Positions 16,715 through 37,213 of a stretch of DNA of 64,000 nt are shown piece after piece. Positions within the stretch are counted from its first letter, which is position 1. Every line of letters begins with the position of its first letter. The DNA is from Siphonodentalium dalli (Eukaryota; Mollusca; Scaphopoda; Gadilida; Siphonodentaliidae): the NCBI GenBank assembly GCA_032622095.1, contig CP136062.1, forward strand, positions 230,840,578 through 230,904,577, given 5' to 3'. Position numbers and translations under genes: made by a program. The notes beneath the pieces are model-generated. The model worked only from the letters and a program-made list of their open reading frames with translations, was not told the DNA's origin and did not search any database.

Positions 16715-16992
16715 ATGGCGTCGTCAGACGGCTCTGGGAAAACTCCGAGCAGAAAAAGATTGTTTACGGCCACATTGAAAGCAAAAAAGGCTACAACTGA
16801 TTCGGCGAAAAAGCTTCTCGACAAAGCTAAACATGAAGCTACACTAAGAGAGAGAGATTTATCGCGAATAAGGATAGGTGACCAAGTAGAACGGTGGGAA
16901 AATGCAAGAAAAATTTTGGGTGTAGAGAGACACGGAGCAGCTGGAAGAGGACACGCTGTCGACAGAAACGTTGCAAAAGCACTGCTTGATCG
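16715..16992 (+). CDS. Transposase-like gene, exon 1
   Basis: Start ATG at 16715, donor gtaagt at 16993, phase 2. It encodes a basic Lys/Arg-rich head, then SRIRIGDQVERWENARKILG and VAKALLDR. The 'RI..G..ERW' and 'LLDRFFE' blocks (the latter completed by exon 2) are conserved in the family's N-terminus. The exon is flanked by direct repeats of about 45 bp at 16580-16627 and 17199-17240. Confidence 0.8.
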
Positions 16993-19900
16993 GTAAGTTA
17001 TTGAAACAAACTTCGTCATAATATTAACATGACCAAAATTATTCAAAAGATTTAGTAGTATTATCATAATTATGTCAGAAAATAACATGATGAAGTGCTA
17101 CAGTACAGCCAGGTACATGTAAAAATTTAAATGTTGTATACTATAGTCTATACATTGTAATCTGGTTTCAATTTGAAAATTGAGCCAGAATTGTAGAAAT
17201 CAGGTCAGGGTGGCTATTTATAGAACTACAAATTCATTCGGACGGAGTTAAGGTGAACCACCGATCGGTCTAAAATAGATCGATTGGTCTTCCTACATTG
17301 TAGTATTCCTTAGCGGCCTGATTCAGTGATTGGGCTATTATAGATTGATCGGTGATTCACACATATCTCACAAATTATACTACTAACATTAATCATACAC
17401 ATGTAGGTTCAGGCAATGGCTAATTTATGTGACTATCATGAAATGTGGGAAATAAATTGAATACTTTTCTGGTGTCAGAAAATACCACACTGTTCAAATG
17501 TACTCAACTTGATCGTACCGTGAAGTTGAGTAATACCTATTAATAATGTGACGGTGGTAACTTATATAAATATATATCTCTCGTGCTCGTTGTATTACGA
17601 ATATAGGTGGTAATAATAATATTATGTGATAAATAAAAGTGATGTGAAATAATCCGGTAGAGTGACCAAATAGAAATTCAGAATAATCTTGATCAAAGTT
17701 TCAGTTACGGTATTTTCATGAATATTAATAAAAATTGTCAACACACACCCTAATTCCTATATTTTAATTGAATGCAATGACTCTCGATGCCAAAATAATT
17801 TGTGTTAGTTTATTGCGGATAGTTGCGTCCTGAATCATGATGTAAATATTTACAATTGAGTGTTCTTTAGGACGATATTTACTATGGTCTATGGAGTTCT
17901 GCCATGTATTTCTTTACAATTTTCGGCGATGTTAGTAGAATTCTATATACCCCAGGTCAGTATAGCATCTGGACACTAATTTATCAATTTCACACATCCG
18001 AACAAGTCCATAATATGTCTTTAATGGGAGGGGGTGTTTGTAACATCAGTTCACATTTATATGTAACCTGAACGTATTCTTTGTTTAGCCATATATATAA
18101 CAACCAAGAGTTCTCAAAACCTTTGCAGCCTTCAGCACTTGTTTTGGTGAGAGTCTCCTTCAGTGTTATTAGCAGCCATCCAGATACAATTAAATTTAGC
18201 TTCCGGCATAATTACAGTTAAATTTTTGGAAGAAAACTATAAATTAATATTGTATTAATGTCCTTCTATCTACAGGTTTTTCGAAATGAAGGATAACATT
18301 GATGAAGTTCCTGATTTGATTGGTGAAGTTGCTGAACCAGAATTACACACACAGCCGGCAACACCATTATCAAAACGGAGCAGCCTACCTTTATTATGGC
18401 AAGGAGCAACATCGACTCCAGCTACAACGCATACCCTTACCACCACACATGTGCCATCTCTGGCTAGGAAAGCGATCTTGGCCAGTGTTTCAAGCATTTC
18501 AAGCGGGGTGTCAAGGTAGGCCTACATACTGTTCAGTGAGATAGTACTTGTAAATGTACAAAGATATGTCAAATTTATTGACTGGTTATATGGGCTAAAT
18601 TGTCTTACCCGTGATTGAAATATGGGTCCAGAATTCTAACAACAGGTTCCTTCTCTCTATTCAATCATGTAATTCACACAATGGTGCTGAATTATCTTAA
18701 AGGGGTAGAGTAATCAAGCGTTATAATTATTGTCGGCTTCTATATTCTCTGCTTTAAAGACGTTGAGCAGTCTTTCCATGATTTGGCTATCTGCTGAGTA
18801 CGAAGTAATATCTTACAGCTGGCAGATAAGCCGGTATGAAAAATGGGATACTCGTCAACAAGATAATTTTGTTTAGTTTTTAGGCAATTGTATCGATGAA
18901 ATGTTAGTATATATGCATAATATTGCCAGATACAAAACATGACAGATTTAAGTGAATTCTCAGCTTTTAGTGTTTTCTCCTTATAGTTCTGCCATTGTAA
19001 TTGGAAAATCTGCTAGATACAGGCTGGCAGCAATATTTTGAATTGTCTCGTGTTGTTAAGATTCAATTTGCTTGCGCAGGTGATTACTATATACCTGTAT
19101 TTTTCAGTGTGAATGGGGAGAGAATTTCTGATACGTCAGTAGTCCAAGGTCTAGGATGTTCAAGGATACCTGTGCCAACCTCAAGGATACCTGTGCCAAC
19201 CCGTACTAGTACCAGTGTAACAGAAACTGATGAAAGCGAAAGAAGAAGCCTCAGGTTACATAAGAGGACAATTCACGAAGATTATGTCCTTTATGAGGAT
19301 TCAAGGTGTGTACATGTACAAACATATCCTCACAAGGACCCTCACAGATACCCCCTAACCTGACAGCTTTTATGTATCACCAGTGTTATCTACATGTATG
19401 AGAATGATCAGCCATTTGACCACACATCCCTGTGCTAAAATATTGAGGAAAAACATCACATCCCATGCACCCAAACAATATAAATCTGTATTTAAATGAA
19501 ATCTTCAGGGCCAGTTGATAGGTCTGTAAAATAAAATACTTATTTGATAATTGAATCCACTTTAATCAACCAGGTTAAGGAGTCCTGGCTCTCCTAAGTT
19601 GTTAAAAAGACTGGATTTTCTCATGACACATCACTTTTTCATGAACTTTAATGATATTTTTATGAAAATTTAGAATAACTGGTGCTTTTTAAAAATAAAA
19701 TGATCTTTTCACCATACTACATATAACTCGATCCTCCAACCGAGACATTTGAACATATGACAATTAGTCTATTGGAGCAATCCATTGGTGCTTAATACTA
19801 ATTTTGACTATTTCAGGCACGAAATTGATATATCATTTGGATCAGATGATGATGTAGAAGATGAGACACCTGCATTGGCAGCAGGCGATGACGCAGATTG

Positions 19901-22900
19901 GGAGACTGATGATGAAATGGAGATAACACTAAGGCAAGTGCAATTTAATTTCATTTTGATAATATTATCAGTCACAAATCTTTTATATTTATATTTTACA
20001 ATGTAAAGTTTGAGCTATTGCCATGGGTTGATCGTCCGTACGATTGGCCAACAACTATTTCCTTTCGAACACCCTGCATCCAATTGTCACCAATCTTCAT
20101 ATGGATTTTCGGAGTGACCTCTATATGACAGCTTATCATTTTATCCAAATTCTGTTAAAAGCATGGATGCCAGTGGCCATCTTGCATTTCAATCTTTGTA
20201 TGACTAAATCCGTTGGGTGTTTAGTAATACATAGACATACCAACTTTCTGCATTCCCTATCACTCCATTATCTGTAGCAATTGACATTATTATATGCTGG
20301 TTTCTTTCCCCAATTCGTATGTTTACAGTAAGGAAAAAGACCAGAAATCTATCAATGTTCACCTCATTAATAAAACAACAGGTTAATAGCAGTTCTGAGT
20401 GACGTCAGATACTCCAGGGGTTAACATAACTTATTATCAGACCTGAAAATATATTGTAACCAAAATAAGTGAAATTTAATTTGAAATGCAGTTATAGCCA
20501 CCTCTTTGCAATACCCTCTGGTTTTGTCACCGCTATCTAAACTGTTATTCGTTCATACTAACTCCAGGCCGAGAAATTTGAATGATGCCCATATCTTGGA
20601 CCAATCTGTAGCTGAAGAGATGTTTGATATTGGCACTGATGATGAAAATGAGGATGACGATGATCGAATTGAAAATGATGAGCAAGAATATGAAGGCAGT
20701 GAAACAACATCTCAAGATTCTCAACCAAGAACTCTCAGAAGGATCAATGTTTGCCCAGGAGAAGCAAGTCAACATGTGGCTTGTATTGCATACAAAGAGT
20801 GTCTGGAACAGCTAGCGTTGATTTCCCTGACAAAGTGCTCAATGGCTGATTGTGGGGAATGCATAGAGGTTCGCTCAAAACAGATTGGTACTGCCATCAG
20901 GATGGACTGGGTATGTTACTATGATGATCTATCTACTGTAAATTAGTTTCAATGCACTTTACATTATTATTACCCTGGCCATTTGATTCCCCATCCTCGC
21001 TTGGGAGAAAGCAATACGAGCCGCTAATGAGCACATCAGGATTAACATACTGCCTATCAACTCCCTACCAGATACTCGGTTAACAGACAAATCCACAGAA
21101 ACAACTGTATTATGTTATTGCTTGTGGAAGGAAACCATTGCAGCTGATGTTCAATTGCAGATGCCTGGATTTTTATCAATGTTTTCACACCACATCTTTA
21201 CGAGTCAAGCACTGTAAACACTGGATCTACCATGTCACTATGGTACAATGATCTCCTAAAAGAAATTTCCCTAAACTCTTTTTATTTGGTAATGTTTGCT
21301 GCTCTTAATGGGGCACGAGCCCTTCAGGGTACAATCTATAGATATTCCATTTTGTTTGTAAAGTTTGAGCTATTGCCATGGCTTTGTCGGCTGTTGTCCA
21401 TGTGTGTGTGCATGATTCGTCCACAATTTCCTTTAGCACAGGCTACAGGTCGTACCTTTGGTCGGATCATTAGGAAATTTGTCATGGCTGTTGACATTGA
21501 CATGTACGGGTTACAAGTCGCATCTTTGGTCCGATCATCATAAAATTTATCATGGATGTTAATAACGACATGTAAATGGGAATGAGTCTTTTTGGGGTCA
21601 TTCGGTAAAAAACATGCCTGCCAGCGGCCATCTTGGATTTTACTCTTTGCATAACTATGCCTTTCAACTTTCATAATCACTCCATTGACTGTAACACAGG
21701 AAATTATTCCTACAGTGTCATTGACACTTTCATTGTAATCCATAATCACAATGTTGAACGTAGAAAACATATTGCTATTAATTCTTGGTTAACAAGATTT
21801 ATCATGTTGAACATGTAAGGAAAACATTACTGTTGAATCACAGAGGGCAATTGTATTTTTAAATTTCTTGCGGAAAAGAATTTATTTGACATTTTCTGAT
21901 GTTTGTCAAATGTCGATGCAATTTCATAGCATGTATATCAACTTGTTGTTGGGTAATATATTCCCTTATGTCCCTTTAAGCGTTTTGTCCAAGTCAATTT
22001 TCAACAGTGGTGTAAGTTGCATATATGTGATGCTTCAAATGTTTGAAGATATTTGGAGATGATGATCTATGGGTAGTAACACTGTTCTGCTGTAATGGCT
22101 AACTTAATTTGACTATTTTAACAGGTTTGCAAGAAGAATCATCATTCATATTCCTGGTGTTCGCAGCCGTATGTCAAACGCAGTCTCTTTGGCAATATGA
22201 TGTGTTCTTCAGCAGTGCTACTGTCAGGGAACAACTATGAAAAGATAAAGCTATTCTTCAAGTTCATGAATATGAAGTTTGTCAACACCTCATCATTTAA
22301 TAGATATGTCAGCTTATATGTTGTGCCGGAAGTTGAAAAACAATTTGAATCAATGATCTCCAAGAACCGGTCTGATGCTAAAGAAAAGGATCTAGTTCTC
22401 TTTGGTAAATAGATTTCCCTCTTTTTGTTGTCAAAATGGACAGTCAAGCAAATGGAAAGTCATAGTAATCTATTATAGCTGTTTACACCAAAGGCTCAGA
22501 AATTGTGATGGCTGGTAATTAAACAAATTTGTACTTGTGGAACAGTGAATAGGGTGCACTGGCGTGGGGCACTTGTGCACCGAAAAGTCTGGCATAATTA
22601 TGTTTTAAAAATCCTGAGATATCAAGACTACTATTACCTTTTTGCATGAAGAAAACCAAAAAAACGGAAGATTTTGTATATATTATTTGTATATAAAAGG
22701 CATAATAAAATGGTCTTTCTGAAATAGCCGAGTGAAATCACTAAATTGAAATATCATTCTCCCGGGATGGTGAGAGAACAAGTGAGAGGTTTGCTCTTGC
22801 TGCAGTCTGAACTTTTCTGCGATATCGGCTTATGTTTCTGTTCTAAAAATAGGCTGTAAAATTGTATAAATATTTTATATAACAGAAAAATTTAAATAAA

Positions 22901-25900
22901 ATTAATATTAATTGATACATGTACATGTAGATGCATTTCCGGACAGGTATCTTCGATTCATATTTATTATTTTATACCCTGAAATCATGTAAGGAAGAGA
23001 TGCATTATCTTTCGAGTGAGAGCATAATTGCTCACACTGCATTGTTCTTAATCTTTGTCTAATATAAAATAATTTTTCTTTTAGCTGACGCCCGTTGTGA
23101 CTCACCTGGTCACTCAGCACAGTATTCAACATACACCATGATGGAGAAAGACACTGGCAATATTCTAGCAATGAGGATAGTAGACAAACGCGAGACTGAC
23201 TTGAAATCGACCAATATGGAAAAGTTCGGCTTTGAACGGTGTTTGGAGGATTTACTTGGGGATGGTTTGAGAGTGAAGGAGATTGCCACTGATGAACATC
23301 AGGCAATAGCAAAATGTATTCGTAAGTATTATGGCTTCATGATTTGACAATGAAATAAATATATCTGTTGGGAGCCAGATCCCCATTATCTCCTATACCT
23401 CTGTCTGTCTGTCTATGTCTGTCTATATGTCTGTATGTCATTTATACAAATCTACGATTCTCGACCGATCGGGGCGAAACTTGGTACGTGTGTGTAGTTT
23501 GACCAGGCGGTCGTCGTTGTCGTATTGGCGAGCCCATGCGGGGCCCGCTTCGCGCATGCGCAGACCAGATCTCGGAAATGGGTGGAGCTATCGACTTGAA
23601 ATTTGCTATGTGAATGTATCTTGCCCCGGATACGAATTTTATCGGGTCGCCGGGCCCGTGCGACGCAAGCTTCGCGCATGCGCAGACCAGATCTCGGAAA
23701 CGGGTGGAGCTATCGACTTGAAATTTGGTTTTTGAATAGCCCGGACAACGTCGGGCTCATCGGCTTATCTATTATATATTTTGGAAGATCTGTGTGTGTC
23801 TGTCTGTGTGTTCACGATGGACTCGAAAACGGCAGAGCCGATTTCGATGAAACTTGGTATGTGGGGGTACTTTCGGCCGGGGAGTGGCATGGGCCTATTA
23901 ATTTGCCTGTGCGATGTGACCTTGAAATCGGGTCATTTCAAGGTCGAACGCCAGAGTATCTCAGGATTTCGATGAAAATTAGTGTCTGGGAGATACTTTC
24001 GTATGGGGAGTGTCGTAAGCCTATTCGTTTGCCCGTGCGATGTGACCTTGACCTTGAAATCGGGTCAATTCAAGGTCGAGTCGCCAATTTGGATGGGATT
24101 TCGACGAAATTTGATACGTGGGGTTACTTTTGTCCACTGAGTGTTTTGGACGGGTCGAGTCGTGACCAATTCAATTCAAGGTCAAATCTGGTAAAACCGG
24201 ATGGATTTCGACGGGTACTTTTGTCTGGCAGTGTTTTTGGACGGATCAAATCGTGACCCCACCTGACCTTGACCTTCAAAATGGACAATTCAAGGTCAAA
24301 TCGCGCAATTTGTCGAAAAGCAGAGGGGAAACAGCCCGGACGAAGTCGGGTCCACCTGCTAGTATTTTATATGGTTTGTCTGCTATTAGGACAAAATTGT
24401 ATACACAAGAAGGTGAATGTTCAAAACATTAAAATGCTGATTATTATGGCATATAAATATAGATGTGAAAATTATGACCGTTTTGGCAAGAACAATTTTG
24501 TGTAGAATCAATCGCAAACAATAATTCTTCAATGCTCATCTTAGAAAATTGCAATGCTGTTAAGACATTCATGTTTTCACACTTAAAATTAAACTCACCT
24601 TCAGTTATGATTTTGTTATTTTTGATAATTCAGGTGGAAACACTAAGTTAGGGTATTGTGATATGTATTGTATCGTTGATCATATATATCCTGATCTGTA
24701 TTGTGAACAAGTGTATCATTTCAGCCCTACTTTATTGAGATATCAACAATTGTTTGTATGGTGCAAGTGTCTAAATATACATATTTTTCTGTTACAGGAA
24801 CCAAGCATGCAGGAATAATACACTCTTTTGATGTATGGCATGGGGCTAAGCTTCTTGCTAAACACCTGAATACGGTAGGTATCCTTGGTAAAGATCATGA
24901 AATTTAGTTATGACTTCTAAAGATTCAACTCGTAAGACAGATTTGGACTGGAGTATTTTTTTTAATTCTCGGGAATAGATGAGATTTAACTAGAAGACAT
25001 ATATTCAACAAGAGGCCAATCACGATCGGCATATGATTAACCCATCCCTTGGCGATAGTAAATAACTATTATTGTAATCATAATTTATTGTTTTGATGTT
25101 GAATCATAGAGTATACATAATAAATAGAGGATATCTACAGTTTTGACTGAATATGAGAGAATTATCAATCATGAGTGGGTACAAGCTAAAATTGATATTT
25201 GCTTGGAGCCACGAATGATAATTCTCCTGTTCAGTCAAAAGCTGTAGGTTTCTTTTTATTATATGCGGTTTCGTTACTTCACTTACAATTACTTCTCTCA
25301 GGCGATTGTTTTGCCAAATTAAATGTAGACGAACACCAATCTGCTGATCGCAAACTGATTGACTCATCACTGGATCACAGATAAATCACTACACGAAGCT
25401 CGATATCGCTCTGTAACATGCATTTCCATAAGAGATCAGTACGCACTATCGCCATCTTAAAAGTATATGACGTCACGTGACTCATGTATGTCACAGATAG
25501 TAATGCAATGAATGCCAATATGAAAAGCAAATAACTTTTTGGTATTAGCTCGCTGCAACAGGTGATTGATACGCCGTTTATTTCCCGACCATTTAGAACT
25601 GTTTCACTGAAGAGCATACAGAATATATTGCTCATATATGTTATTATAACTTTTAAATTGCCCTTTAGGTACTCCCCAGGTCATCGCAAAATTTCAGGAA
25701 GCTCCAGTCATGGAAGGGTTAGACATATTTACAAATTACAAAACGTTTCTTATTTCTGCTCAGGTTGCCAAAACCAAGGGTTGTGAAGATATGAAGATTT
25801 GGGTGAAAGAAGTTGTCAATCACTTTTGGTATTGCTGTGAACACGCTAAAGACAGAAAAGAATTTCTGGTGAGTACCCACTTCACACAAATCCTTTCTAA

Positions 25901-28900
25901 ATTGAGGAGATGTTCCCTTTGAAATGTTCCTCCCAATGAATATGAAGCATACTGCTCCTGTATGATCTGTTTGTCTGTGAGCTTTCTGCTTTTATACATG
26001 AACATCCCTCCAAATGAATAATAGACCATTCCAATGTATACTTTCATAACTGATGGGAGAATCCATTTAGTAAAGGAAGGGTTATATGAGACTGAATTGC
26101 AATCACTATGGTCAGACTGGAGTGTTTATCTGTCAGAGCCTGCAAATAGAGTGCCTGTCATTTGCAAAGTGAGGTGCATGGCAGGCTAGCTTCACCAAAT
26201 TCACCCTCTCAGAACCTTATTCTGCTGAGAGCCTGAGGCCTCAGCTGCTATGGGAGATCTAGGATAAGATTTAAGTACCCAGATGGTGAATATGATGTGC
26301 ACCCATCGGCCACCTCGATTATGCATTTTATATTCTGCAAATTAGGGGATGTAGAAGGGAAAAAGTAATTAAAAACATTGTTAATTTGAGACTATAGATA
26401 CTTCCAAGAAAACGAGGACTAAGCAGAATGATGTCCTCAGAGAATGAATTTGGTGATGCTACCCCACTGTAAAGATAGATAGCATCACTCAATTCACCCT
26501 CTGGGGATCTCATTCTGCAAATGACAGACACACTATTTGCAGACTTGTATCCATCCTTACTATTTTGATATTTTCTGTGAATTTTTTTTTCTCATAAATT
26601 TTTCTTGGTTTTGCCATTAATTTGAGTTTTATGTCTCTTTCAACAGCTATAGTTATTCGTTATAGTTGTGGAGAAAAGACAGCGCATAGAGTTAACAACT
26701 TTAAAACTAGACCTAAAATACACACTAACTACCTTTTGCTGGCAGTATAAATCCCAGCTTTCAGATATATATATTTAGGAGTCACAGCCTGTTGCAAATA
26801 TATGACTAAATAAGCTATTTCATTTCAAACAGGGAATGTGGAATGGCCTGGTACACCATGTGATCAATAAGCACGAATGGCCCATAACAAATGGCTTCGG
26901 GAAAGGCAAATGCATGCATGATGAACTGCCATCTGATTACAGAAGTGACTTTCTGGTGAAAGGCTCCGCTGCACATGTGGCACTTAGGAAAGCAGTTTTT
27001 CGAAAAAGATTTCAGAATAAAATTGAGAAATATGTGACATTCAGGTAAGTCAACACTGTACTGAGATTTAGGTATGTGTATCTCAAGAATGTCTATCTTT
27101 TCCTTGAACTTTCTGCATTTATTCCAATTTTTTCCATTTATAGCTGAAACTTTTTCTTCATATTGTATCTATTAAAACTTTCGAAGTGAAATGCACCAAA
27201 GAACTGATGCTTTTTTTAGATTAATAATGCAGCCATATCTAGAATCAGATGTAAGTTCCCAGATGGTGACTATGATGTGCACCCATCGGCCACCTCAATT
27301 ATGCATTTTATATTATGCCAATTGTTTTTGTTATTTTGCCGGAAACAGACATAATCTTCAAAACACAGGAATAAGTATATGACACACCTGCAATAATTAG
27401 CTGTATTTGAAGGCAAAAATAAAAGCGCTGATAATAGTCAGATATAATAATATTTACATACGGAGTGTGATTATCACTAAATCCAGCATTCCGATTGGTC
27501 GGCGCCCACGTGACTATTTCTCGGTGAAGAGGGTCATAATTACAACCATAATTACGTCGACGCGTCATTGATTTTGGAGAAGAAGAACGCCTAATGTTTT
27601 GGGCGCATTTGCACTCGCGCAGGATTGACTTAATAAATCAGGTTTCAATATAAATCAGGTTTCAATATAAAGAGGCTCGTTTTGAAATTGTTCTCAGCTG
27701 GTTTCTGGTCGGGTGCTATGGGATATTTTGGGCTGGTTTTGTCACGATACACTTTTCGATTTAAATACATTTACAAAAGTGGCTTTTTCGCTAAATGTAT
27801 ATAAATATAAGGAATAACTGTCATGTGGACTGGTTTTATGGAGATGTAACCATGAGGTGAGTGGTTTTACACAAGTTATGACCACTTACCTCACGGTTAC
27901 ATCTCCATAAAAATAGTCCACATGACAGTTAATCCTTAAATAAATATTGGACTTTTGTATGTTTGACACCATAACTTGTGTTTATTGGTAGTACTTTATG
28001 GGCGCCTCTAATCAAATCGATTCAGAATCTTTCATCTGATTCGATTTTAATTTTTCGCGAAGATATATCATGATGCCAATGAAAGACCACGCATACAAAT
28101 AACACTGAATGTGATTGTTTACTGACTTCATAATTGCTTCTTATTTATTATGGTTAATCAGATGGCAGCAGACAATACTCACTTAATTGCTTACATACAA
28201 AATGAATCCATTTATAGATAATAATGCAATAACTCAATTTGAGATTTGATGCAATTCGTAATCATTTGGCTGATTTGATTCGAGATTCGATTCAAAATGA
28301 AAATACCCTATTCGCAGGGTACTAGTACTTGTTTGTGATTAGCTCACTTGTGTGGTGATACTGGAATGACTATCATCAAATTGGATGGGACATGCCTAAT
28401 GAATAAATTTATAAACATATTTTTTATTTCTCACAGGAACACTGGAAATTTGGAGAACTTCCATCAAATTATCCTAATGTACGCAGCAAAGCGGTTTGCC
28501 TACAAATTTCCCACCTTCAGAGCAAGAAACTACCTGGCAGCACTGGATTATCACCACCACAAGGACAGAGAAGTACTAAAAACAAAGGATGGAAAAGAGA
28601 GGTAACTTTATTAGTGGATTAAGGCTCACAGATTATGCAATGAGATTTTCAGTTGATGTACCCATCACATTCAGCTGAAATTTTAAGTAAGATACAGCAA
28701 GCGAAGAGTTCTCCACCAGAATCAATCGAGTTGAAGACGAGATTGATTCTTGTAAAGAACTATTCTCATGCTTTGACCAACTTCGAGCCCAATTGACTGG
28801 TATCAACTGGAGAGATGATTGGTCTAATTGTTATGTACTAGAATGTGACACAAGCAAGTAGTATTGCTATACATTAGTTGGGACTCCAAATCGCTATGTG

Positions 28901-29811
28901 GCTATCGAGAATTGTCAAAGTTGTGAGGTGAGAGTTCCCAGACACTGGTCACACCTTTTAAAACCTTGCCTGTTTAATATCTTCATTTGGGCAAGTAGAA
29001 ATGGTTGCAAAATAACTTTGCTGCAGTGAATAATCATGTTTTTTTCTTACACAGTGTGGCATTGCGCCCGTGCAATTTGCTTGTGTGACCAATGGGATTA
29101 TCGTTATCCTCATAGGATATTCAATCGCTAGTCTTGAGGATTTGTGTGCTTTACCATAAATCGGGGATTGATTGTAGCAATCAACCAGTGCTATGAGAAA
29201 ATTTAATTCTTACATGCAAATGGTAACCAATGCCTGACAGAACTCATTAGTAAAACATATACATGTAGACATTTTGAGAATAAACAGCTACCGGTATGTA
29301 TACCTGAACTCGAACAGTATGTAAAAAATCTCATTGGCCTCTCCTGTTTTGTTTTTAGCAAGAATCCAAAGAATTAACAAAAATAACTTAAAAGATATGC
29401 TACATGATGAGGCCACAACCATGCTACAGATTAAAAAATTTCAGTTTTAACCAAAATTCCCATCCCTGTGATAATTTACAGGGGCGAATGTTACTGAAAA
29501 GTTGTAGATATACCTATCCTGGACATAAAACAACATAATTTGCATTTTATTACAGATACACAAGAACATTCAACAAGAAATCAAAAGTTTGGTCTTGTCA
29601 CGCACAGAAAGTGAAAAAAGACTTTGCATATATACCAGATATCTTGGAAAATGTGGTAACAATAAGGTTCAAAGACAGTGGCCGAATGACCAGACCTCAG
29701 GAATTATTGCCAGAGGATCCCCGTCGAATTTCTGCAACAATTGCACCAGTCCAGCCTCCGTCGACCGAGGAGATACTCAAGGCCAAGAAGTCCAGATTTA
29801 AGTATGTATAA
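16715..29811 (+). CDS. Multi-exon DDE-transposase-like gene, complete (12 exons, 835 aa)
   Basis: Exons: 16715-16992, 18276-18515, 19108-19305, 19817-19933, 20568-20910, 22125-22404, 23085-23321, 24798-24874, 25764-25868, 26833-27044, 28437-28601, 29556-29811. They sum to 2508 nt and every junction keeps frame. The product resembles a large, poorly named invertebrate and fish family marked by 'DSPGHSAxYxTYT', 'TDxHxxI', 'HSxDVWHxAK', 'NHFWYCC', 'HHVxNxHEW' and 'LENFHxxILMYAxKRF'. Layout: conserved N-terminal block (about 60-95), long acidic and Ser/Pro-rich disordered middle (about 100-350), Cys cluster (about 355-410), then the catalytic-like half. Candidate DDE acids are D487, D555 and E702 (inference). 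No frameshift or stop was found. Eleven introns are unusual for an active transposon and suggest an old or domesticated gene. AATAAA lies 18 nt past the stop. Confidence 0.8.
17253..17360. mobile_element. Small MITE in intron 1 (108 bp)
   Basis: The left end gtgaaccaccgatcggtcta and right end tagattgatcggtgattcac are inverted copies. The element is wholly within intron 1 of the transposase-like gene. Confidence 0.6.
18276..18515 (+). CDS. Transposase-like gene, exon 2
   Basis: Acceptor ctacag, donor gtaggc. Joining CG to G restores Arg and gives LLDRFFEMKDNIDEVPDLIG. The remainder is Thr/Ser/Pro-rich and probably disordered. Confidence 0.75.
19108..19305 (+). CDS. Transposase-like gene, exon 3 (SRIPVPT repeat)
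   Basis: Acceptor tttttcag, donor gtgtgt; phase 2 on both sides. It contains CSRIPVPTSRIPVPTRTSTS, a tandem heptapeptide matching the SxIP type of EB1-binding motif, followed by a basic and acidic patch (ERRSLRLHKRTIHEDYVLYE). Confidence 0.7.
19817..19933 (+). CDS. Transposase-like gene, exon 4 (GC donor)
   Basis: Acceptor atttcag. The donor is GC rather than GT, in the strong context AAG|gcaagt typical of GC-AG introns. The exon is highly acidic (SDDDVEDE, ADWETDDEME). Phase 2 on both sides. Confidence 0.65.
20003..20285 (+). repeat. Dispersed repeat in intron 4
   Basis: It starts 'aaagtttgagctattgccat' and contains 'gccagtggccatcttgcatt'. A diverged copy is in intron 5 (21356-21680, ending near 'gccagcggccatcttggatt'). 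The 'gccatcttgg' block also links it to the repeats at 42-46 kb. Confidence 0.6.
20568..20910 (+). CDS. Transposase-like gene, exon 5 (acidic region and Cys cluster)
   Basis: Acceptor ctccag, donor gtatgt, ends in phase 0. An acidic stretch (TDDENEDDDDRIENDEQEYE) is followed by Cys at CPGEASQHVAC, YKECLEQL and TKCSMADCGECIEV. This fits a metal-binding module that continues into exon 6 (VCKKNHHSYSWCSQP). Confidence 0.75.
21356..21680 (+). repeat. Dispersed repeat in intron 5
   Basis: Second copy of the repeat seen in intron 4. It contains an internal duplication: 'ggtcggatcattaggaaatt' (21459) and 'ggtccgatcatcataaaatt' (21527), each followed by 'tgtcatggctgtt' or 'tatcatggatgtt'. Confidence 0.6.
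22125..22404 (+). CDS. Transposase-like gene, exon 6
   Basis: Acceptor taacag, donor gtaaat, start phase 0, end phase 1. It encodes WCSQPYV, GNMMCSSAVLLSGNNYEKIK and FFKFMNMKFVNTSSFNRYVS, the family block that precedes the first catalytic strand, ending in KDLVLF. Confidence 0.8.
23085..23321 (+). CDS. Transposase-like gene, exon 7 (catalytic core, first two Asp)
   Basis: Acceptor ttttag, donor gtaagt. It reads ADARCDSPGHSAQYSTYTMM, then DKRETDLKSTNMEKFGFERC and VKEIATDEHQAIAKCI. The first Asp of ADAR (about 487) and the Asp of ATDEHQ (about 555) are the expected catalytic acids of an RNase H-fold transposase. This is inference from family layout. Confidence 0.85.
23389..23767 (+). mobile_element. 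Helitron-like non-autonomous element 1 (intron 7)
   Basis: The 5' end starts 'tctcctatacctctgtctgt'. It has two units about 122 bp apart with 'cgcatgcgcagaccagatct' (23553, 23675). The 3' hairpin is agcccggacaacgtcgggct (about 23738-23757). The expected CTRR end is not clean here (CTTA). Confidence 0.5.
23768..24362 (+). mobile_element. Helitron-like non-autonomous element 2 (intron 7)
   Basis: It starts with TC ('tctattatatattttggaag') and ends with CTAG followed by T. A cccgg...cgggt hairpin is centred near 24343, about 10 bases before CTAG; this is the classical Helitron 3' signature. The body has three units with 'ccttgaaatcgggtcatttc' or close variants. No Rep/helicase coding sequence. 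Another 5' end of the same kind starts at 63891. Confidence 0.7.
24798..24874 (+). CDS. Transposase-like gene, exon 8
   Basis: Acceptor gttacag, donor gtaggt. A short 77-nt exon: RTKHAGIIHSFDVWHGAKLL, AKHLNT. The HSFDVWHGAK block is strongly conserved in the family. Ends in phase 0. Confidence 0.8.
25005..25080 (+). mobile_element. Family A 5' fragment (intron 8)
   Basis: 'aacaagaggccaatcacgat' followed by 'taacccatcccttggcgata' matches the 5' end of family A elements; the 3' part is absent. Confidence 0.6.
25764..25868 (+). CDS. Transposase-like gene, exon 9 (alternative acceptor at 25680)
   Basis: VAKTKGCEDMKIWVKEVVNH, FWYCCEHAKDRKEFL, donor gtgagt. The acceptor at 25763 gives the spacing expected for the family. 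An upstream acceptor 'ccccag' at 25679 is also in frame with no stop and would add 28 residues. Confidence 0.75.
26278..26345 (+). repeat. Direct repeat left of exon 10
   Basis: 'gatgtgcacccatcggccac' and 'attatgcattttatatt' recur at 27252-27320, on the other side of exon 10. Confidence 0.8.
26833..27044 (+). CDS. Transposase-like gene, exon 10
   Basis: Acceptor aaacag, donor gtaagt. It encodes GMWNGLVHHVINKHEWPITN and GSAAHVALRKAVFRKRF. The HHV..KHEW block is a family hallmark. The exon lies between two direct repeats (26278-26345 and 27252-27320). Confidence 0.8.
27252..27320 (+). repeat. Direct repeat right of exon 10
   Basis: Partner of 26278-26345, with only a few mismatches over about 70 bp. 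The two copies are 975 bp apart and enclose exon 10. Confidence 0.8.
27815..27931. repeat. Long hairpin (about 49-bp arms, intron 10)
   Basis: The left arm starts taactgtcatgtggact and continues ggttttatggagatgtaac. The right arm is the inverse (gttacatctccataaaa, agtccacatgacagtta). The loop is about 17 bases. Few mismatches. Confidence 0.85.
28437..28601 (+). CDS. Transposase-like gene, exon 11 (third acidic residue)
   Basis: Acceptor ctcacag, donor gtaact. It encodes NTGNLENFHQIILMYAAKRF and LAALDYHHHKDREVL. The Glu of GNLENFH (about 702) is the best candidate for the third catalytic residue. Confidence 0.8.
29556..29811 (+). CDS. Transposase-like gene, exon 12 (terminal)
   Basis: Acceptor ttacag. 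It encodes YTRTFNKKSKVWSCHAQKVK, KDFAYIPDI, a Pro-rich tail (ATIAPVQPPSTEEILKAKKS) and stop TAA at 29809-29811. 'gtatgt' overlaps the last codons and could act as a cryptic donor, but the family normally ends about here. Confidence 0.75.
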
Positions 29812-29828
29812 GTCCATACGGTACCCAA

Positions 29829-29834
29829 AATAAA
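29829..29834 (+). terminator. Polyadenylation signal AATAAA of the transposase-like gene
   Basis: Canonical hexamer 18 nt after the TAA stop, so the 3' UTR would be very short. Confidence 0.5.
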
Positions 29835-30540
29835 TCTGATTATCATGTTAGAAACCGATAAATAATCCACCTGTATCTTTGTTCAGAACACATGTAGATG
29901 GTGCAGGGTACTTACATGTGTTCCCAATTTAATTTTTTTTTATATAATTGGCTCATCACAAGCAACTATGCATGCTGTTCAAGTTTAGCTGCACTGTTAT
30001 GTACTGAATACTCAATGATGAATAGTTCTCTCAGTAAATCTTGAGATAAGTTATTATGTGAACATTTCCCCACCAATGAATATGAATACTTCTGCACTTG
30101 TATATCAATCATTTGTCTGTCAGCTGCTTTTATTACCTGTGCATAATACTCCAATAACGAGATTTTACATATTCAAAATATTGTTATGTAGACATAACTG
30201 TTATAGTAGCATTACTGATCAAGTCGACTCAAAATTAGTCTAATCTAATTGAGGATAAACATTGGATAATGTCAAAAGTATTGAAAATTATGCTTAAAAT
30301 CATATTCAGACCAAACTATTCGACTGTACTAAAGGATTAGCAATGTTTGTTAACAAACCACTGTAACAGTTATATTTACAAAACATTGCTTTCAACATAT
30401 GAAATGTCGTTGTGTAGGCTTATCCATGTTTTCTTTGTTAAGGGTGATGTTTTTACAAACTTCTACATTTTTGGCACATTACTCACCATGAGGTCCCTTT
30501 AATAAAAAAAATGATTTTACGGATTGCTAGAAGAGAGATC

Positions 30541-30546
30541 TTTATT
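30541..30546 (-). terminator. Polyadenylation signal of the P2X7-domain gene
   Basis: tttatt on the plus strand is AATAAA on the minus strand, 17 nt past the stop at 30563. Confidence 0.55.
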
Positions 30547-30562
30547 TACACATTTTCTACTT

Positions 30563-30823
30563 TCAGGCCAAGTGATTAGGATCAAACCCTCTGTATTGTC
30601 CAAATGCATCAGGATATTTGTCGCGTATCCTCCACACTGCACATGAGGGTACAACTCGCCTTATCCCAGCACCTAGCCGGCCATGCTGCCATAAAATGTA
30701 CTGACGGTATGCTCCATGACGGAATCCTTTCATTGGATCATCTTCGTCCGCACCGAATGTCTGCTCTCTCCAAAGCCTCGCTACTAACAGAACGCCGTCA
30801 TCAAGGACGATTGCATCCATGAG
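30563..30823 (-). CDS. P2X7-domain gene, exon 5 (terminal)
   Basis: Acceptor tttttacag. It encodes LMDAIVLDDGVLLVARLWRE, AYRQYILWQHGRLGAGIRRV, VPSCAVWRIRDKYPDAFGQY and RGFDPNHLA with stop TGA. The 'YRQY..W.HG.LG...R.V.PSC' block is the hallmark of the family. Confidence 0.88.
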   Translation of the reverse strand, partial: LMDAIVLDDGVLLVARLWREQTFGADEDDPMKGFRHGAYRQYILWQHGRLGAGIRRVVPSCAVWRIRDKYPDAFGQYRGFDPNHLA

Positions 30824-33800
30824 CTGTAAAAAGAGCAAAGCAGGAATTATTGATACTGGATAATGTATCGCAAAGAACCCTTTGTGTTTTGGATGCCCAA
30901 TATGTCTGGGTCTCTTTTTCCTTCATCGTCTATAGATTCATAGCTATGAAATTACATGTATAATTCAAGAGCACCAGTCAACATTTTTAGTGATTTCATT
31001 CAGTACAACAAACATCATAAAACATTGCCCTGTCTTAATGATCAATGTTTGATGGAAAGAAATTGATTTATCATCGTTTTGGAAAATGTTTGTCATATAT
31101 TCCTTGCGGTAAAACAATGGGTCTTCAAACAGAGATACATGTACCTTAAAATTCTTGAAACATGTTATTGAAAGTGTGGACAGTTCTATTTTGATGATAA
31201 TGGATGGAGCTTATTGCATTAAAATCTACCTGTGTGCCTCTCAACTCTGTACAGAGGGTCATTAATAAACACATGTACATGTAACAGTCTTTCACTGTTG
31301 AAATATTATACAAATAATGTGCTCTGTGATTTTAGAAAATTATGTCATGAGTGAGCCAGGTAAAAATTTTCATGAGTCGCTAGCAAAAAGAAAGTTTTCT
31401 TGTCAACGAATGACATCGTTTTTGATAGCCAATAGAAAAAGGACTAGATATTCTTTTCAATATATGAGTATCCATAAAATTTCAACAATTATGAAGATAA
31501 ATGTTCTCAAATGTCATGGCCATCAGACGATATGTTAAAGCCAATGCGGCCCATGAGCAAAACAGAGAAATACATGTATAGTTCATTATTTTTGCCGAAT
31601 TTCAACATAAAACAGATTTTTATTATAAGCATAATAACAGTAAAAGATAACATTACTGATTCGTGAGGATAATGAAATATTCTGGTTAGCACAATGGTAG
31701 AGTGAATTGGTCCCACATGTGAGCTTGTATGAAAGTGAAAACTGGGGATATCAAAATTTATTACACTGCATAAACCACAATTCAGCATATCATTTTACTG
31801 TATATCTCAGTGCCAAATAATAGTGATTATTGGAAATATTCTCCAAAATTCTATACAAGAGTCTGGGATGGAAATTCTTCAGCCACCTATATGAAAACTT
31901 AACTTTATATATAGGGTATATCAATTGACTTACTGGAGATACTGATATGCAATCAGCTGCTGATGTTGCGCCACAGCACAAGCGTTCTATCTCCAACGGC
32001 ATTTCTCTACATTTCGTGCAAGTGCACCAGTTAGGTGCTGTTGTTCCCTCAGGTGGGTGGTAACCCTCGAGGACCCTGGTCCCATCTACCACATGGAAGA
32101 TGAGTGCTGGATGAGCTACGGCCATCCGCAGACACAAATCTCTTACTTCTGCCTCATCCAGTTGATTAATTCGTTCCTGGAATAGAGTGGGATTATATAG
32201 CGATGTATATAATATTTACAAATAATGTGGAATGCATATATTTTAGGCATTTGTAAATTTTTCTATATAAAGTTAAAGGTACTCAATCCGATAAAACTCC
32301 TCTCAATTACGATTTCAATGGCTTCGGGGGTCAAAAATATTTAATTCGAGTCGAGGAAGTCACCCATCAAAGCTCAGATTTGTTAGATATCGATTTTAGA
32401 TATCTATTATTTTTCATTATCGGGAATACTTTCTGGCCCAGAACTCAGTCAAAATTGCGTTATTATTACCACTTGATTTTAGAGTTATCCATCCTTGTCT
32501 GTTTGAACAGTGTTTTGGTGTACACATCTCGAGCAGGATACGAAATTGACGGCAATTATTAGTACTCATCTCGAGAACATAACAAATTTCAAAAATCAAT
32601 ATCTAATAACTCTGAGCTTTGTTTGATGGGTTCCTCGACTCGAACCAAAGAAATAGTAATATAGGACCCTCTGATCGGATTGTTGTTATTGGAATCTGTT
32701 GAGATGGGGACCCTCTGTTCGGATTGAGTACCTTTAAAGAGTAGAGAAATTAAATATGAATATTCCATGAAGCATCTTACGACCTACACTAACAGTTTGA
32801 AATGTAAACAGACATTCATGTGTCTTGTTTTAGGTTACTATCAAATGGACTTTTGTAATAAAAAAAACATGTTTTCATTCCAAGTCGCCTAATGTTTTTT
32901 AAATAGCGGTTACAAAAAGGTTCAAGAAGTATATTTGATATTGTGGCACATATTGCTGAAGTAAACCATGAAATTCCACCCCGTTCTTATTACATGCTTT
33001 TGTCAATATAGACCAAGTTTTCTCGGTCTACACCAGCTTGGGATGTCGGTTGGGATGATGATATTTGGTTTTAACCTAGTCCTGCTCTTCTATAATGGAT
33101 GTTCATTCAAAAGATGTACTATATGTACATGTGGCATCTGGACATTCATGTTAACCCATGAATGTGATTAATCATCTGACATATCTGCAATTAATCTGTT
33201 TTCAAACTGATATATCATTTACCGTGATAGAAATATGTACCTGTATAGTAACGATAAAATCATGTAATGTATTGTTTACCTGCATTGTCTGATAGCGCAA
33301 CAAAAGTCAAAATTCTCTGGAAAACAGGGCTTTGTTTACTTATAAATCTCATTGCTTGGACACTTAACAGACCTCTGATATGTGCATGTTTAATATCATC
33401 ATGCTTGCGAAAATGAAAGCTTGGCATATATGAACATAGAGGGCACTATGTTCATATACGCAAAGCTTCCATTTTACCTAATCCAAAGACATACAAGCAA
33501 TAATATAACTCCTGTCCACGATTCTGTGCATACAGTTCATTATAGAAGAGTAACGGAATGGGACTCGGTTCAAAACAGCACCAACCCAACTAATATCTCA
33601 AGCTGTTGTGGGGCGAGAAGACTTGGTCGACTGCCAATGTTGATCCAACTTTAGAACTTTATTTTGTTCATACTTTTCTTCTGAAAAAATGTGAGAAATA
33701 AAAATATTTATACAGAAATGAGTATCATGATTCATATTCCAACTCTAAAAACCCTATCTGCCAAAGGGCAGAGCTTTTCCAAAAGAACGTAATCTTCTGG

Positions 33801-36800
33801 GGCGTTAAGAATTTAAAGTTTTTTATATTATAAATTATAAACAAAACTTTGAACATACTGGTATTTATTACTCGTACATACACTGTTAACGCTTCATTGA
33901 TTCACTTTCTTCCAATTTCAAATCGGATGCAGAAATCACGGATGACTCCCCACATCCATGTGTGATGAAAACCAACCACTTATTTTTTGTTTGTTTAGAA
34001 ACTACAGAAGGGTAAATGACTACGGTACTAAATGTTAAACCTACTCGAAGGTACTCCTCTTGATCCTCTCGTCTCCTAGCAACATCAACCTCAGGCCTCG
34101 CGGCAATCGCTGCTCTCCCACCTGCACGAGCACGTGCCCTTCCTCTCCTTCTTGGCACTGCCCCAACCGCAGCAGCTGGTGTTGCCACTTGCCCTCTCCC
34201 ACGGCCTCGCTTACCACGACCTCTGCCACGTTGCGTTGTTACTCCAGCTTCAGCATCTGGCGGTGGTGGAGATGCCACTGCACCACTCCCACGACCTCGC
34301 CCACCACGACCTCGTCCACCACGACCCCGCCCACCACGATCTCCAGCGCGTTCAGTGGCGATCCCACTTGGGCCAGCTTCATCATCTGGTGGCGGTGAAG
34401 GCGTCGGAACTGGAATCCTGTAAACCAAAACAAACAAATTTATCTTTGGGAAAAACTTGGTAGTATTTGAGCAAATAAACAAAACAAGTTTCTTTTCTCA
34501 TGGAATATATATTTTTAAAATTGATGGGGGCAGATGGGGGAGGCAAATATTTTTATTTATAATCTATTTGAAATTATTTTTGGAAGGCGGCAGGTATTTA
34601 TATATAATCACTCAAAGTGCAAAAAGACACCCAGGACGTCCCAAATGTGCAAAAAGACACCCAGCATCTTGAGACTTCATCAAGAATGCGATTTTAGATT
34701 AGTCGTCTGCTAACTATAATATGTATTTGTTTTTGATTGGAGTTGAATTTCAACGGCATTTGAATTGGCATCCCCATGATACTGTTTGCTGACACAGCTG
34801 TTCTGTATCATAATCGAATTGATTTTTGAGATGATGGGTAACTTTTTGCACATTTGGAAGATCTTGGTATGGGTGTCTATGCCTAGAACCATACGACAAT
34901 GACCAATTCAGCCATACTGGTAGCTATCAGTATTGCCTTGTGAAGCGGTTACCAGTTTCAGTGGTATGTATTGCTTCATACCATATACTGGTTTAATTCA
35001 TGGAGCCATATTTAATCCATGAAATTGGCCACAGCAAACAGCAATGCTGTGGCAACATGCAGGTAATGCCACAGCACAAAATCTTTCTTAATATTGAGGG
35101 CTGCAGTTCTTATACATACAATTTTATGGTGCTGTTGCGAATATGTGCCTATACCGCTATTCTCAAAGTAATTGACCAGAAAAACGGGGTGATACCCCGG
35201 TCATGACCGTGGTGATACCGGTAATAAACGGTAGCGGTATCGAGACGGTCATGGCGGTGGAGTTACGGTATTGGGCGATAATGATACCGCGGTCTTTTAG
35301 CGGGCACCGCATTAATTTTGTTGAATACCGCAGTGATTTTCATGGAACTCTTTGAGGGGAGGTATTTACTCACACATACTTGTTCGCGTTAACAAGCGGT
35401 ATCAGTACCGCGGTATTGGAGGATACCGCGGTATAGTACCGCCATATTAACGGGGTGACACCACGTTATTGGTGGTCAATTACTTTAAGTATAGCGGTAC
35501 CTGAATTCCGGACAAAACAGAAATGAAGTATTCTAAAATATAAATTTGATCACAACCTCTCCTGGGTAAAATTTAATAAATAAAAGTCTTCAGCTATACT
35601 CTCAAAATGTAAGTAAGTACCTGCTTAATCCTCTTGTTCTCACCGCACCTCGTGTCCTCACCCCACCTCTTGTCCTCACACCACCTCTACCTATTTTGGC
35701 AGGCGTTGGATGCGGTGACGATGATTCTACCGAATTTGTTGATGAAAGGCGAAGACTAACCGATGAGCCTTCTTCATCAGACTGAAACAAAAATAAGAAA
35801 ACAATAACACTAAAAGTTACAAATATATGTATTACCAAAACCAGTTATTTGAACATTTTATCAAAATCCACCGACAAATCCCTGCCAATCACTGGAACCT
35901 TGGAAATTCAAACAATATGCCATAAAAATGTCCAACAATTACTATAATGCATGAAATTTCAAACTGTAAAAATGTTTATCAAAGTTTGGGGGGGGGGGGG
36001 GGGGGGGTCAACACAAACCCCTGTTGTCACATCCCTGATTTAGAAGTGTCAAGAAGAAAATAGTACAGGATATCATTTCAAAAACATTCATTAGGCTATG
36101 CCATCTAACCCCATACATTTAAAATACATATCTGCATGTATGTGCCATGATGTGGCAAGATGGTTCCCTGGAATTACATGTAACATTGAAAAGTGCCAAA
36201 TACCTGTAGATCATGCCATGAATCTCTACTACTCTCTGACTATGGGCACTGTAGAATAGAAATTCATGGCATTATCTAAGTGGCAACTAATCATAAAATG
36301 ACCTAATACTAACCCTTTCATGACAGGGGGTGTGTGGGTGCAGCATTAAAGACCCTGTGCCAGTGCATTCTATTATATATGAGTCTCCCATAGGGAGCCT
36401 GGTACGGTACATATAAGAGAATGCACTGACTTGCAAGATCAAGGTAAATATTGTTACACCAATGCCTGCTCTTATATATGAGAGCACATATATAAAAGAA
36501 TGTATTGGCACAGGGTTTTCACAAAATTTCAGGGAGCTCCAGTCATGTCATGTCGTGAAAGAGTACGGTAAGTTCTAAAAAAGGGCAAGTTCTCAATGAC
36601 AACTAACCAAAACCCTGCTATGGTTACAATTCCTTTTTTTTTAAAAACAGGGTGCTAAAATATAATCATGACATACACGGCTCATTCTCTTTGTCAAAAT
36701 AATGAAATAATAAATAAATTTAGTGAAGTTGGTAGCCGAAAGGTAGCGTACCGGTCTCTTGTGCTAGCGGACCGGGGGATCGAAACGTGGTCAGTGTATT

Positions 36801-37213
36801 CTGACAAAAAATCAGATACCAAGTTTGTCAGGCTGAAAAGTCTCGACATTCAAGATCATATCCCCCCCCCCCCCCCGAACAAACTACACTACAGCCATCA
36901 ACAATTCACCTGTGTTGTATTCAATCCCAAGATTGCCCCCACCGGGACCTTCACCCACAAACCACATCCATTGTACCAATTTGTTGCTTGGACGATGACC
37001 AGTTCCACAGTCAACATTCAATTTCAGTTTCAGTCAGTTTGAGAGTGAAAAAAAATAAATAATCTAAATCCTCCAAAAACACACTAAATTGCCAAGACAA
37101 AGATGTCGCGCTCTCCCAAAATCTTCCGCATTTATGTGACCAACATAGTATGCTCCGGACTCGTTACGGTGATAAATCTTATGCTTTATATAACAATAAT
37201 CACTCACCGACAT
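30563..37213 (-). CDS. Stand-alone P2X7 C-terminal (ballast) domain protein, complete (5 exons, 347 aa)
   Basis: Minus-strand exons: 37213-37208, 35781-35621, 34417-34045, 32176-31934, 30823-30563. They sum to 1044 nt and all phases agree. The protein starts MSSDEEGSS and has a Ser/Arg-rich part with three VRTRG repeats, SRIPVPT, a long Arg/Gly-rich tract (RGG-like, about 75-100 residues), then the domain known from the cytoplasmic tail of P2X7 receptors: Cys-rich WCTCTKCREMPLEIERLCC and YRQYILWQHGRLGAGIRRVV, DKYPDAFGQYRGF. In P2X7 this region binds zinc and guanine nucleotide. No transmembrane segment or P2X channel part is present, so this is a soluble protein, not a receptor. It converges on the transposase-like gene. 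Confidence 0.82.
31000..31780. other. Intron 4 of the P2X7-domain gene, nothing recognised
   Basis: AT-rich, with no element ends and no second open exon. Confidence 0.4.
31934..32176 (-). CDS. P2X7-domain gene, exon 4
   Basis: Acceptor tattccag, donor gtaagt, phase 0 at both ends. It encodes ERINQLDEAEVRDLCLRMAV, HPALIFHVVDG and the Cys-rich NWCTCTKCREMPLEIERLCC, ending DCISVSP. The Cys pattern matches the zinc-binding part of the P2X7 tail. Confidence 0.85.
32277..32733. mobile_element. TTAA-flanked MITE, copy 2
   Basis: Inverted ends aggtactcaatccga and tcggattgagtacct, with TTAA at 32273-32276 and 32734-32737. Internal similarity to 6374-6809 includes 'cttcgggggt', 'ttttagagttatccatcc' and 'atggggacc'. 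Located in intron 3 of the P2X7-domain gene. Confidence 0.8.
32740..33880. other. Intron 3 of the P2X7-domain gene with one small hairpin
   Basis: No gene is seen. 33416-33468 is a hairpin with about 23-base arms (aagcttggcatatatgaaca and its inverse). Confidence 0.45.
34045..34417 (-). CDS. P2X7-domain gene, exon 3 (RGG-type region)
   Basis: Acceptor tttacag, donor gtaggt. It starts by completing Arg and reads IPVPTPSPPPDDEAGPSG, then RGGRGRGG-type repeats and an Ala/Arg-rich stretch, ending QEEYLR in phase 0. Arg/Gly-rich tracts of this kind often bind RNA or are arginine-methylated; the function here is inferred. Confidence 0.75.
35153..35503. mobile_element. Palindromic MITE with 'taccgc' ends
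   Basis: Left end taccgctattctcaaagtaa ttgacc and right end ggtcaattac tttaagtatagcggta are inverted over about 27 bp. The interior is full of 'accgcggtat' and 'ggtatcg' motifs. It lies in intron 2 of the P2X7-domain gene. CCT flanks both ends, so a 3-bp target duplication is possible. Confidence 0.65.
35621..35781 (-). CDS. P2X7-domain gene, exon 2
   Basis: Acceptor tttgtttcag, donor gtactt. It encodes SDEEGSSVSLRLSSTNSVES, then a Pro stretch and GGVRTRGGVRTRGAVRTRG. Ends in phase 2. Confidence 0.75.
35988..36007 (+). repeat. Poly-G run
   Basis: About 20 consecutive G. Similar C or G runs are at about 36864-36876 and 40755-40768. The lengths may be unreliable in the assembly. Confidence 0.8.
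36350..36520. mobile_element. Diverged relative of the 15.2-15.6 kb palindromic MITE
   Basis: 'ccctgtgccagtgcattcta' at the left and 'gaatgtattggcacagggtt' at the right are inverted copies, sharing the 'gcattctcttatatatg' motif with the MITE at 15186-15643. 'atataagagaatgcactggt' at about 1537 is a third trace. Confidence 0.6.
36727..36800 (+). mobile_element. tRNA-like SINE head (candidate)
   Basis: 'ttggtagccgaaaggtagcg' resembles an A box and 'gggggatcgaaacg', about 47 bases on, resembles a diverged B box. The CpG-rich 70-bp stretch stands out from its AT-rich surroundings. No acceptor stem could be folded by eye, so a functional tRNA is unlikely. Confidence 0.35.
37208..37213 (-). CDS. 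P2X7-domain gene, exon 1 (coding part Met-Ser)
   Basis: aaaATGTCG followed directly by the strong donor gtgagt. Only two codons are coding, ending in phase 0, which fits exon 2. The sequence upstream on the minus strand (37214-37400) is CpG-rich and probably holds the 5' UTR and promoter. Confidence 0.6.

What the first reader, a model, noticed from the sequence alone, without database searches (positions are those of the whole stretch)
16715..37213. Convergent pair: intron-rich transposase-like gene and stand-alone P2X7-tail gene
Two complete, in-phase genes face each other with about 750 bp between stop codons (polyA signals 29829 and 30546). Both belong to families that are multi-copy in invertebrates. 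Together they form a compact two-gene block of about 20.5 kb, each with a CpG-rich 5' end on the outside. A transposase-like enzyme paired with a soluble zinc/nucleotide-binding ballast domain may be a functional unit, such as a large mobile element with an accessory protein or a domesticated pair. I do not know of a description of such a unit.
Basis: partly seen in the sequence, partly recalled or inferred. Interest (0 to 1): 0.75.

Follow-up and report, generated by a model that had tools for sequence, protein, structure and literature searches.

The report
Complete Kolobok jumping gene with KolX
The two facing genes are the whole cargo of one 21-kb cut-and-paste jumping gene of the known Kolobok type, which carries its transposase together with a stand-alone version of the tail domain of the human P2X7 receptor; the kind has been described before, but this is an unusually large, intron-rich, recently moved and apparently intact example.

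Summary
A 12-exon transposase gene (835 aa, + strand) and a 5-exon gene for a P2X7-tail ("cytoplasmic ballast") protein (347 aa, - strand) converge with about 750 bp between stops. They are not merely neighbours. They fill one DNA transposon, window 16447-37602, bounded by 17-bp terminal inverted repeats (AGRTGGATTATCTCTTC) and a duplicated TTAA target. A second full-length copy on another chromosome (0.86% substitutions) and empty target sites for both copies show movement as a unit. Genome-wide, 37 of 64 transposase loci have a P2X7-tail gene within 40 kb. All 37 converge, against 0.22 pairs expected in any orientation. This is what the literature calls the Kol0 lineage of the Kolobok superfamily: transposase plus accessory protein KolX, whose P2X7 ballast fold was reported by Kojima & Bao 2022 (PMC9587614). 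Distinctive features are the size, 17 exons, strictly convergent layout, a basic RG-rich arm on KolX in at least two families, and about 20,000 copies of its terminal motif in the genome. How KolX helps transposition is unknown; I infer a DNA-binding cofactor.

The parts
16443..16446 (.). left TTAA target-site duplication
   Evidence: single TTAA at the empty site in related repeat copies
16447..16463 (+). left terminal inverted repeat AGATGGATTATCTCTTC (5'-RR)
   Evidence: homology with the C1 copy begins at the TTAA
16715..29811 (+). Kolobok transposase gene, 12 exons: 16715-16992, 18276-18515, 19108-19305, 19817-19933, 20568-20910, 22125-22404, 23085-23321, 24798-24874, 25764-25868, 26833-27044, 28437-28601, 29556-29811; 835 aa
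   Evidence: in-phase splicing, consensus splice sites, no internal stop; putative DDE triad D487, D555, E702, DxxH 576-579, H2CH zinc finger 633-654
23085..23321 (+). exon with the first two putative catalytic aspartates (DARCDSPG ... TDEHQ)
   Evidence: conserved with other Kolobok transposases of this genome
28437..28601 (+). exon with the putative catalytic glutamate (NLENFHQ)
   Evidence: alignment; matches RLEVFHS of a 32%-identical relative
29812..30562 (.). intergenic stretch between the convergent stop codons, with a polyA signal for each gene; 30143-30411 is a dispersed repeat
   Evidence: sequence; repeat
30563..37213 (-). KolX gene (P2X7 cytoplasmic-ballast protein), 5 exons: 37213-37208, 35781-35621, 34417-34045, 32176-31934, 30823-30563; 347 aa
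   Evidence: Pfam P2RX7_C E=5e-31; P2X7 structures E=4e-17
34045..35781 (-). KolX exons 2 and 3 (35781-35621, 34417-34045): basic RG-rich arm (180 aa, 35 Arg, 33 Gly, net charge +20)
   Evidence: the same kind of arm in a second family (L082/L031)
30563..32176 (-). KolX exons 4 and 5: ballast domain with all 7 zinc-binding cysteines
37586..37602 (-). right terminal inverted repeat AGGTGGATTATCTCTTC
37603..37606 (.). right TTAA target-site duplication

Best explanation
Window 16447-37602 is a complete, apparently intact autonomous DNA transposon of the Kolobok superfamily, Kol0-type (transposase + KolX). SHOWN: it has short terminal inverted repeats, integrates into TTAA with duplication of the TTAA, exists as two independent full-length 21-kb insertions in this genome (this copy and C1:2032694-2057799), and carries two intact convergent genes. 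INFERRED: the transposase, with its DDE triad, DxxH motif and H2CH zinc finger, binds the ends, cuts the element out and joins it into TTAA. KolX, a zinc-stabilised ballast domain with an RG-rich basic arm, is made from the opposite strand as an accessory cofactor, most likely a nucleic-acid-binding partner that helps assemble or regulate the transposase-DNA complex. The transposase probably also moves part of a large set of non-autonomous elements (MITEs) sharing its ends. The convergent layout puts each promoter at an outer end of the element.
For: Second copy 96.6-98.2% identical over the whole length, with homology stopping at TTAA on both sides in unrelated flanks. Excluding gaps the two copies differ at 175 of 20,346 positions. 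Empty sites: five copies of the repeat that this element entered show one TTAA where the window has TTAA-element-TTAA; the C1 copy sits in a roughly 880-bp satellite whose other units run uninterrupted through the site. Intact gene models. KolX: Pfam P2RX7_C 5e-31, P2X7 structures 4e-17, seven zinc cysteines kept in the families readable over them apart from single changes in two loci. Pairing: 37 of 64 transposase loci convergent with KolX within 40 kb, none divergent or same-strand at that distance, expectation 0.22, random placement mean 0.05 convergent. A second, independent family (copies on C1, C2, C5, C6, C7, about 98% alike) also begins at TTAA|AGG on its KolX side and also has an RG-rich KolX arm. 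Terminal motif: 19,717 matches with up to 2 mismatches against 1 for the reversed control; of 1303 exact 17-mers 851 follow TTAA. Single-exon relatives of the transposase give a weak MULE transposase-domain match across the second D to DxxH (E=4e-4 to 8e-4, below Pfam's cut-off). Literature: Kol0 = transposase + KolX, KolX = P2X7 ballast, TTAA, 5'-RR...YY-3' (PMC9587614).
Against: The window's own transposase has no Pfam match above threshold; its class rests on motifs, on 32% identity to relatives and on TTAA/TIR structure. It has no THAP domain, which many Kolobok transposases carry. An AlphaFold model of a relative was too poor to use (mean pLDDT 37). No expression or transposition data. 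The C1 copy has a stop in transposase exon 11 and an altered exon-2 splice donor, and the C8 copy is truncated at both ends and lacks KolX. For the C1 copy the satellite units read have TCAA, not TTAA, at the site. The role of KolX is not tested by anything here.
Confidence: 0.92

Rival explanations
1. The two genes are unrelated host genes or separate repeats that happen to converge here.
For: Both families are multi-copy, so a chance neighbourhood is conceivable; 59 of 96 KolX loci have no transposase hit nearby.
Against: Pairs occur at 37 of 64 transposase loci with one orientation only; both genes lie inside one TIR/TTAA-bounded block that exists as a second full copy.
Confidence: 0.01
2. 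A domesticated pair: the host keeps both genes for its own use.
For: Both reading frames are intact; exon divergence to the C8 copy is lower than in non-coding parts (22/1965 against 222/10872, p=0.005).
Against: Ends, TTAA duplication and a near-identical second insertion show recent mobility. The DDE triad is intact, whereas in Xenopus most domesticated Kolobok genes lost it. Purifying selection in the active lineage explains the exon conservation.
Confidence: 0.05
3. It is a piggyBac element: piggyBac also uses TTAA, and a few piggyBac families carry a KolX-like protein (PMC9587614).
For: TTAA duplication.
Against: Ends begin 5'-RR (AG), which the literature gives as the difference between Kolobok and piggyBac; the transposase has the C/DxxH signature and H2CH finger of Kolobok; KolX keeps all 7 cysteines, unlike the piggyBac-borne version.
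Confidence: 0.02
4. It is a Kolobok transposon, but KolX is not a cofactor: it is a regulator or passenger, for example a repressor that limits copy number, or a factor against host silencing.
For: KolX loci without a detected transposase outnumber paired ones, so KolX may persist alone; what it contacts is unknown.
Against: Long-term retention with the transposase in one fixed layout, in families with only about 32-35% transposase identity, fits a required partner better than a passenger, but does not separate cofactor from regulator.
Confidence: 0.35

Closest known systems
Kolobok superfamily, Kol0 lineage (prototype Kolobok-1_XT; transposase + KolX)
   Same: TTAA duplication, 5'-RR ends, DDE transposase with DxxH and zinc finger, second gene encoding a P2X7-ballast protein (PMC9587614)
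   Different: 21.2 kb with 12 + 5 exons, whereas Xenopus Kolobok transposases were catalogued as single ORFs of about 2.1-2.6 kb (PMC6004289); no THAP domain found; RG-rich arm on KolX.
KolobokP
   Same: transposase on one strand and an accessory gene downstream on the other strand; Kolobok core
   Different: KolobokP has long terminal direct repeats, a His-Me finger nuclease and a CCHC finger after the first D, and is 4.0-4.7 kb in oyster; none of these was seen here
P2X7 receptor ballast domain / NANOR-like proteins (Panther PTHR36981)
   Same: ballast domain, all seven zinc cysteines, R546, Y550, R578
   Different: no channel part; R574 and K583 of the rat GDP site replaced; located in a transposon
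Xenopus T2-MITEs and their Kolobok source
   Same: a Kolobok transposase thought to drive a very large MITE population
   Different: different host; ends not compared directly

Membership tests
Kolobok superfamily | TTAA target-site duplication | tested here: met
   window copy: empty sites with a single TTAA in five repeat copies
Kolobok superfamily | ends 5'-RR ... YY-3' | tested here: met
   AG...CT; second family AG at the end found
Kolobok superfamily | DDE triad with C/DxxH between second D and E | tested here: met
   D487, D555, DVWH 576-579, E702 aligned with relatives; assignment by motif, no structure
Kolobok superfamily | zinc finger (H2CH) between C/DxxH and E | tested here: met
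   HHVINKHEW...KCMH, residues 633-654
Kolobok superfamily | THAP domain (usual in the Xenopus members; not part of the definition given by Kojima & Bao, so not treated as defining) | tested here: not met
   no THAP hit in the Pfam scan of the 835-aa protein
Kol0 lineage | encodes KolX, similar to the P2X7 C-terminal ballast with 7 conserved Cys | tested here: met
Kol0 lineage | transposase groups with Kol0 in the DDE-core tree | not testable with these tools
   Repbase Kolobok proteins are not held
KolobokP / KolobokE / KolobokD | CCHC finger after the first D and a nuclease (His-Me, lambda exonuclease-like, DnaQ) | tested here: not met
   too few Cys between the first and second D for a CCHC finger (sequence); no nuclease domain in either protein
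piggyBac | piggyBac transposase core and ends | tested here: not met
   no piggyBac hit in the Pfam scan; ends begin AG
P2X7 receptor | two-pass channel fused to the ballast | tested here: not met
   Pfam finds only P2RX7_C in the 347-aa protein

The most novel reading that the evidence does not exclude
KolX gives the Kolobok transposase a guanine-nucleotide switch, comparable in logic to the GTP requirement of P-element transposase (own knowledge). The guanine-nucleotide site of the P2X7 ballast would then be a relic of a transposition cofactor. R546, Y550 and R578 are invariant in the KolX copies readable here, but R574 and K583 are replaced, so binding is uncertain.
Probability: 0.1. Interest if true: 0.75.

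Novelty: new member of a known kind. Interest (0 to 1): 0.35.

Why it matters
The P2X7 receptor's intracellular tail has a structure but no settled function, and it is thought to descend from KolX. An intact, recently moved element with both genes, defined ends and a known target makes the function of KolX testable: add or leave out KolX, mutate the zinc or arginine residues, and measure transposition. The 37 convergent pairs show that the partnership is stable across divergent families in one animal genome. The roughly 20,000 end motifs suggest that this machinery has shaped the genome substantially.

Tried and rejected
AlphaFold2 on a single-exon relative (L051) gave mean pLDDT 37 and was not used for fold searches. 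The first acceptor chosen for transposase exon 9 broke the frame and was replaced by the in-phase one. Rfam finds no RNA family in the window. Considered and rejected: piggyBac, KolobokP/E/D, chance neighbours, domesticated pair. The right end of the second family was not reached within the letters allowed.

Full report
OBSERVATION. On the plus strand, 12 exons from 16715 to 29811 join in phase into an 835-residue protein; all introns begin GT (one GC) and end AG. On the minus strand, five exons from 37213 to 30563 join into a 347-residue protein. The stops are about 750 bp apart with a polyA signal behind each. Both 5' ends are CpG-rich relative to the window.

IT IS ONE TRANSPOSON. A DNA search of the intergenic stretch found a second copy of the whole convergent region on C1 and a partial one on C8. 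Aligned to the C1 copy, homology runs from 16443 to about 37609 and stops on both sides. The ends read TTAA-AGATGGATTATCTCTTC ... GAAGAGATAATCCACCT-TTAA; these two sites are the only matches with up to 3 mismatches in the window (0.01 expected). The element body is therefore 16447-37602, 21,156 bp.

TARGET DUPLICATION. The flanks of each full copy, joined in a script with one TTAA, were searched in the genome. The C1 copy lies in a tandem satellite; 40 listed units match the joined sequence end to end, those read having TCAA at the site. The window copy lies in a dispersed repeat. Five copies read through the site with a single TTAA. So the TTAA beside each end of the window copy is a duplicated target, and both copies are independent insertions.

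STATE OF THE COPIES. Window and C1 copies differ at 27 of 3551 coding and 148 of 16,795 non-coding positions, so movement was recent in relative terms; no clock was applied. The window copy has both genes open. The C1 transposase has a stop in exon 11 and a changed donor after exon 2, while its KolX is open. The C8 copy lacks both ends, exon 1, exon 12 and KolX. Differences from the C8 copy are rarer in exons than outside (p=0.005), as expected if the active line was under selection, though counts are small.

THE TRANSPOSASE. It carries a D-D-E arrangement (D487, D555, E702), a DxxH signature (576-579) and an H2CH zinc finger (633-654), aligned with single-exon relatives at 32% identity. Pfam gives nothing above threshold for it and only sub-threshold MULE-type matches for relatives. 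There is no THAP domain. An AlphaFold model of a relative was unusable.

KOLX. The second protein has the P2X7 C-terminal domain (Pfam 5e-31; P2X7 structures 4e-17). All seven zinc cysteines are present. Across the loci read, the cysteines are kept apart from a T in L042 and a stop in L043. R546, Y550 and R578 are invariant, H547 is usual, and R574 and K583 are never kept (residue names from PMC7016195). Its first 180 residues form a basic RG-rich arm (35 Arg, 33 Gly, net +20). An independent family has the same kind of arm, which is the reason for proposing nucleic-acid binding.

GENOME-WIDE PAIRING. KolX searches gave 96 loci and two transposase queries gave 64 loci. Within 40 kb, 37 transposase loci have a KolX gene, and all 37 are convergent. 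Chance predicts 0.22 pairs of any orientation, and random placement gives 0.05 convergent ones on average. Copies within a family are not independent events, but the pairs span families with only about 32-35% transposase identity. The search keeps only the best candidates, so the unpaired loci (27 transposase, 59 KolX) are partly a matter of sensitivity and probably partly decayed copies. A second recently multiplied family (C1, C2, C5, C6, C7, about 98% alike) also starts exactly at TTAA-AGG on its KolX side.

NON-AUTONOMOUS RELATIVES. The terminal 21-mer occurs 19,717 times with up to two mismatches against one reversed control; 851 of 1303 exact 17-mers follow TTAA. Some belong to short elements of about 300 bp with both ends and up to 115 bp of similarity to this element's left end. 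That this transposase moves them is inference.

WHAT IS KNOWN. Kolobok was defined by Kapitonov and Jurka (2007, cited in PMC9587614): TTAA duplication, 5'-RR ends, and in the Kol0 group a second protein, KolX. Kojima and Bao (2022, PMC9587614) reported that KolX has the P2X7 ballast fold and argued that P2X7 arose by fusion with KolX. This element meets every Kol0 criterion that could be tested. The tree test needs Repbase proteins and could not be run. The papers found do not state the orientation of KolX, nor describe an element of this size or intron number, but the library is partial, so I claim a new member and not a new kind.

MECHANISM. Shown: unit insertion at TTAA with duplication, and conserved pairing. 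Inferred: cut-and-paste by the transposase, with KolX as a DNA- or RNA-binding cofactor. A repressor or passenger role for KolX is not excluded.

VERDICT.

Noticed in passing
whole genome (G000); terminal motif TTAAAGRTGGATTATCTCTTC: About 20,000 matches (up to 2 mismatches) against 1 for the reversed control: a very large population of short elements shares this transposon's ends.
   Followed up: partly
G000 C3:126.16-126.29 Mb: Tandem satellite of roughly 880-bp units; a unit of the same satellite on C1 is the target of the second full-length copy.
   Followed up: partly
G000 C1:53.87, C2:189.44, C5:229.37, C6:136.73, C7:27.49 Mb: A second Kol0-type family with five near-identical (about 98%) copies, KolX-side end TTAA-AGGCCCACTTAATTTTCGAGTCATA and an RG-rich KolX arm.
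   Followed up: partly
G000 L050, L051, L053: Transposase relatives with a largely intronless core (open frames of 325-632 aa) beside the 12-exon type in the same genome: intron gain or loss within one transposon lineage.
   Followed up: no
window 23345-24370: GC-rich internal repeat block with GACCTTGACCTTGAAATCGGG-like motifs in a transposase intron, also in the other two copies.
   Followed up: no
window 34934-35497 and 36208-36332: Stretches within KolX introns that are largely absent from the C1 copy, probably later insertions.
   Followed up: partly
window 38344-40163, minus strand: Open frames that look like parts of a non-LTR retrotransposon reverse transcriptase (by eye; no Pfam hit for 39063-39755).
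   Followed up: no
window 15703-16092, minus strand: Armadillo-like exon (weak LRRK2 ARM match, E=0.02) just outside the left end; the transposon may sit next to or in a host gene.
   Followed up: no
window 13943-14185, plus strand: Open frame resembling the end of a copia-type retrotransposon (ADCLTKS motif, by eye).
   Followed up: no
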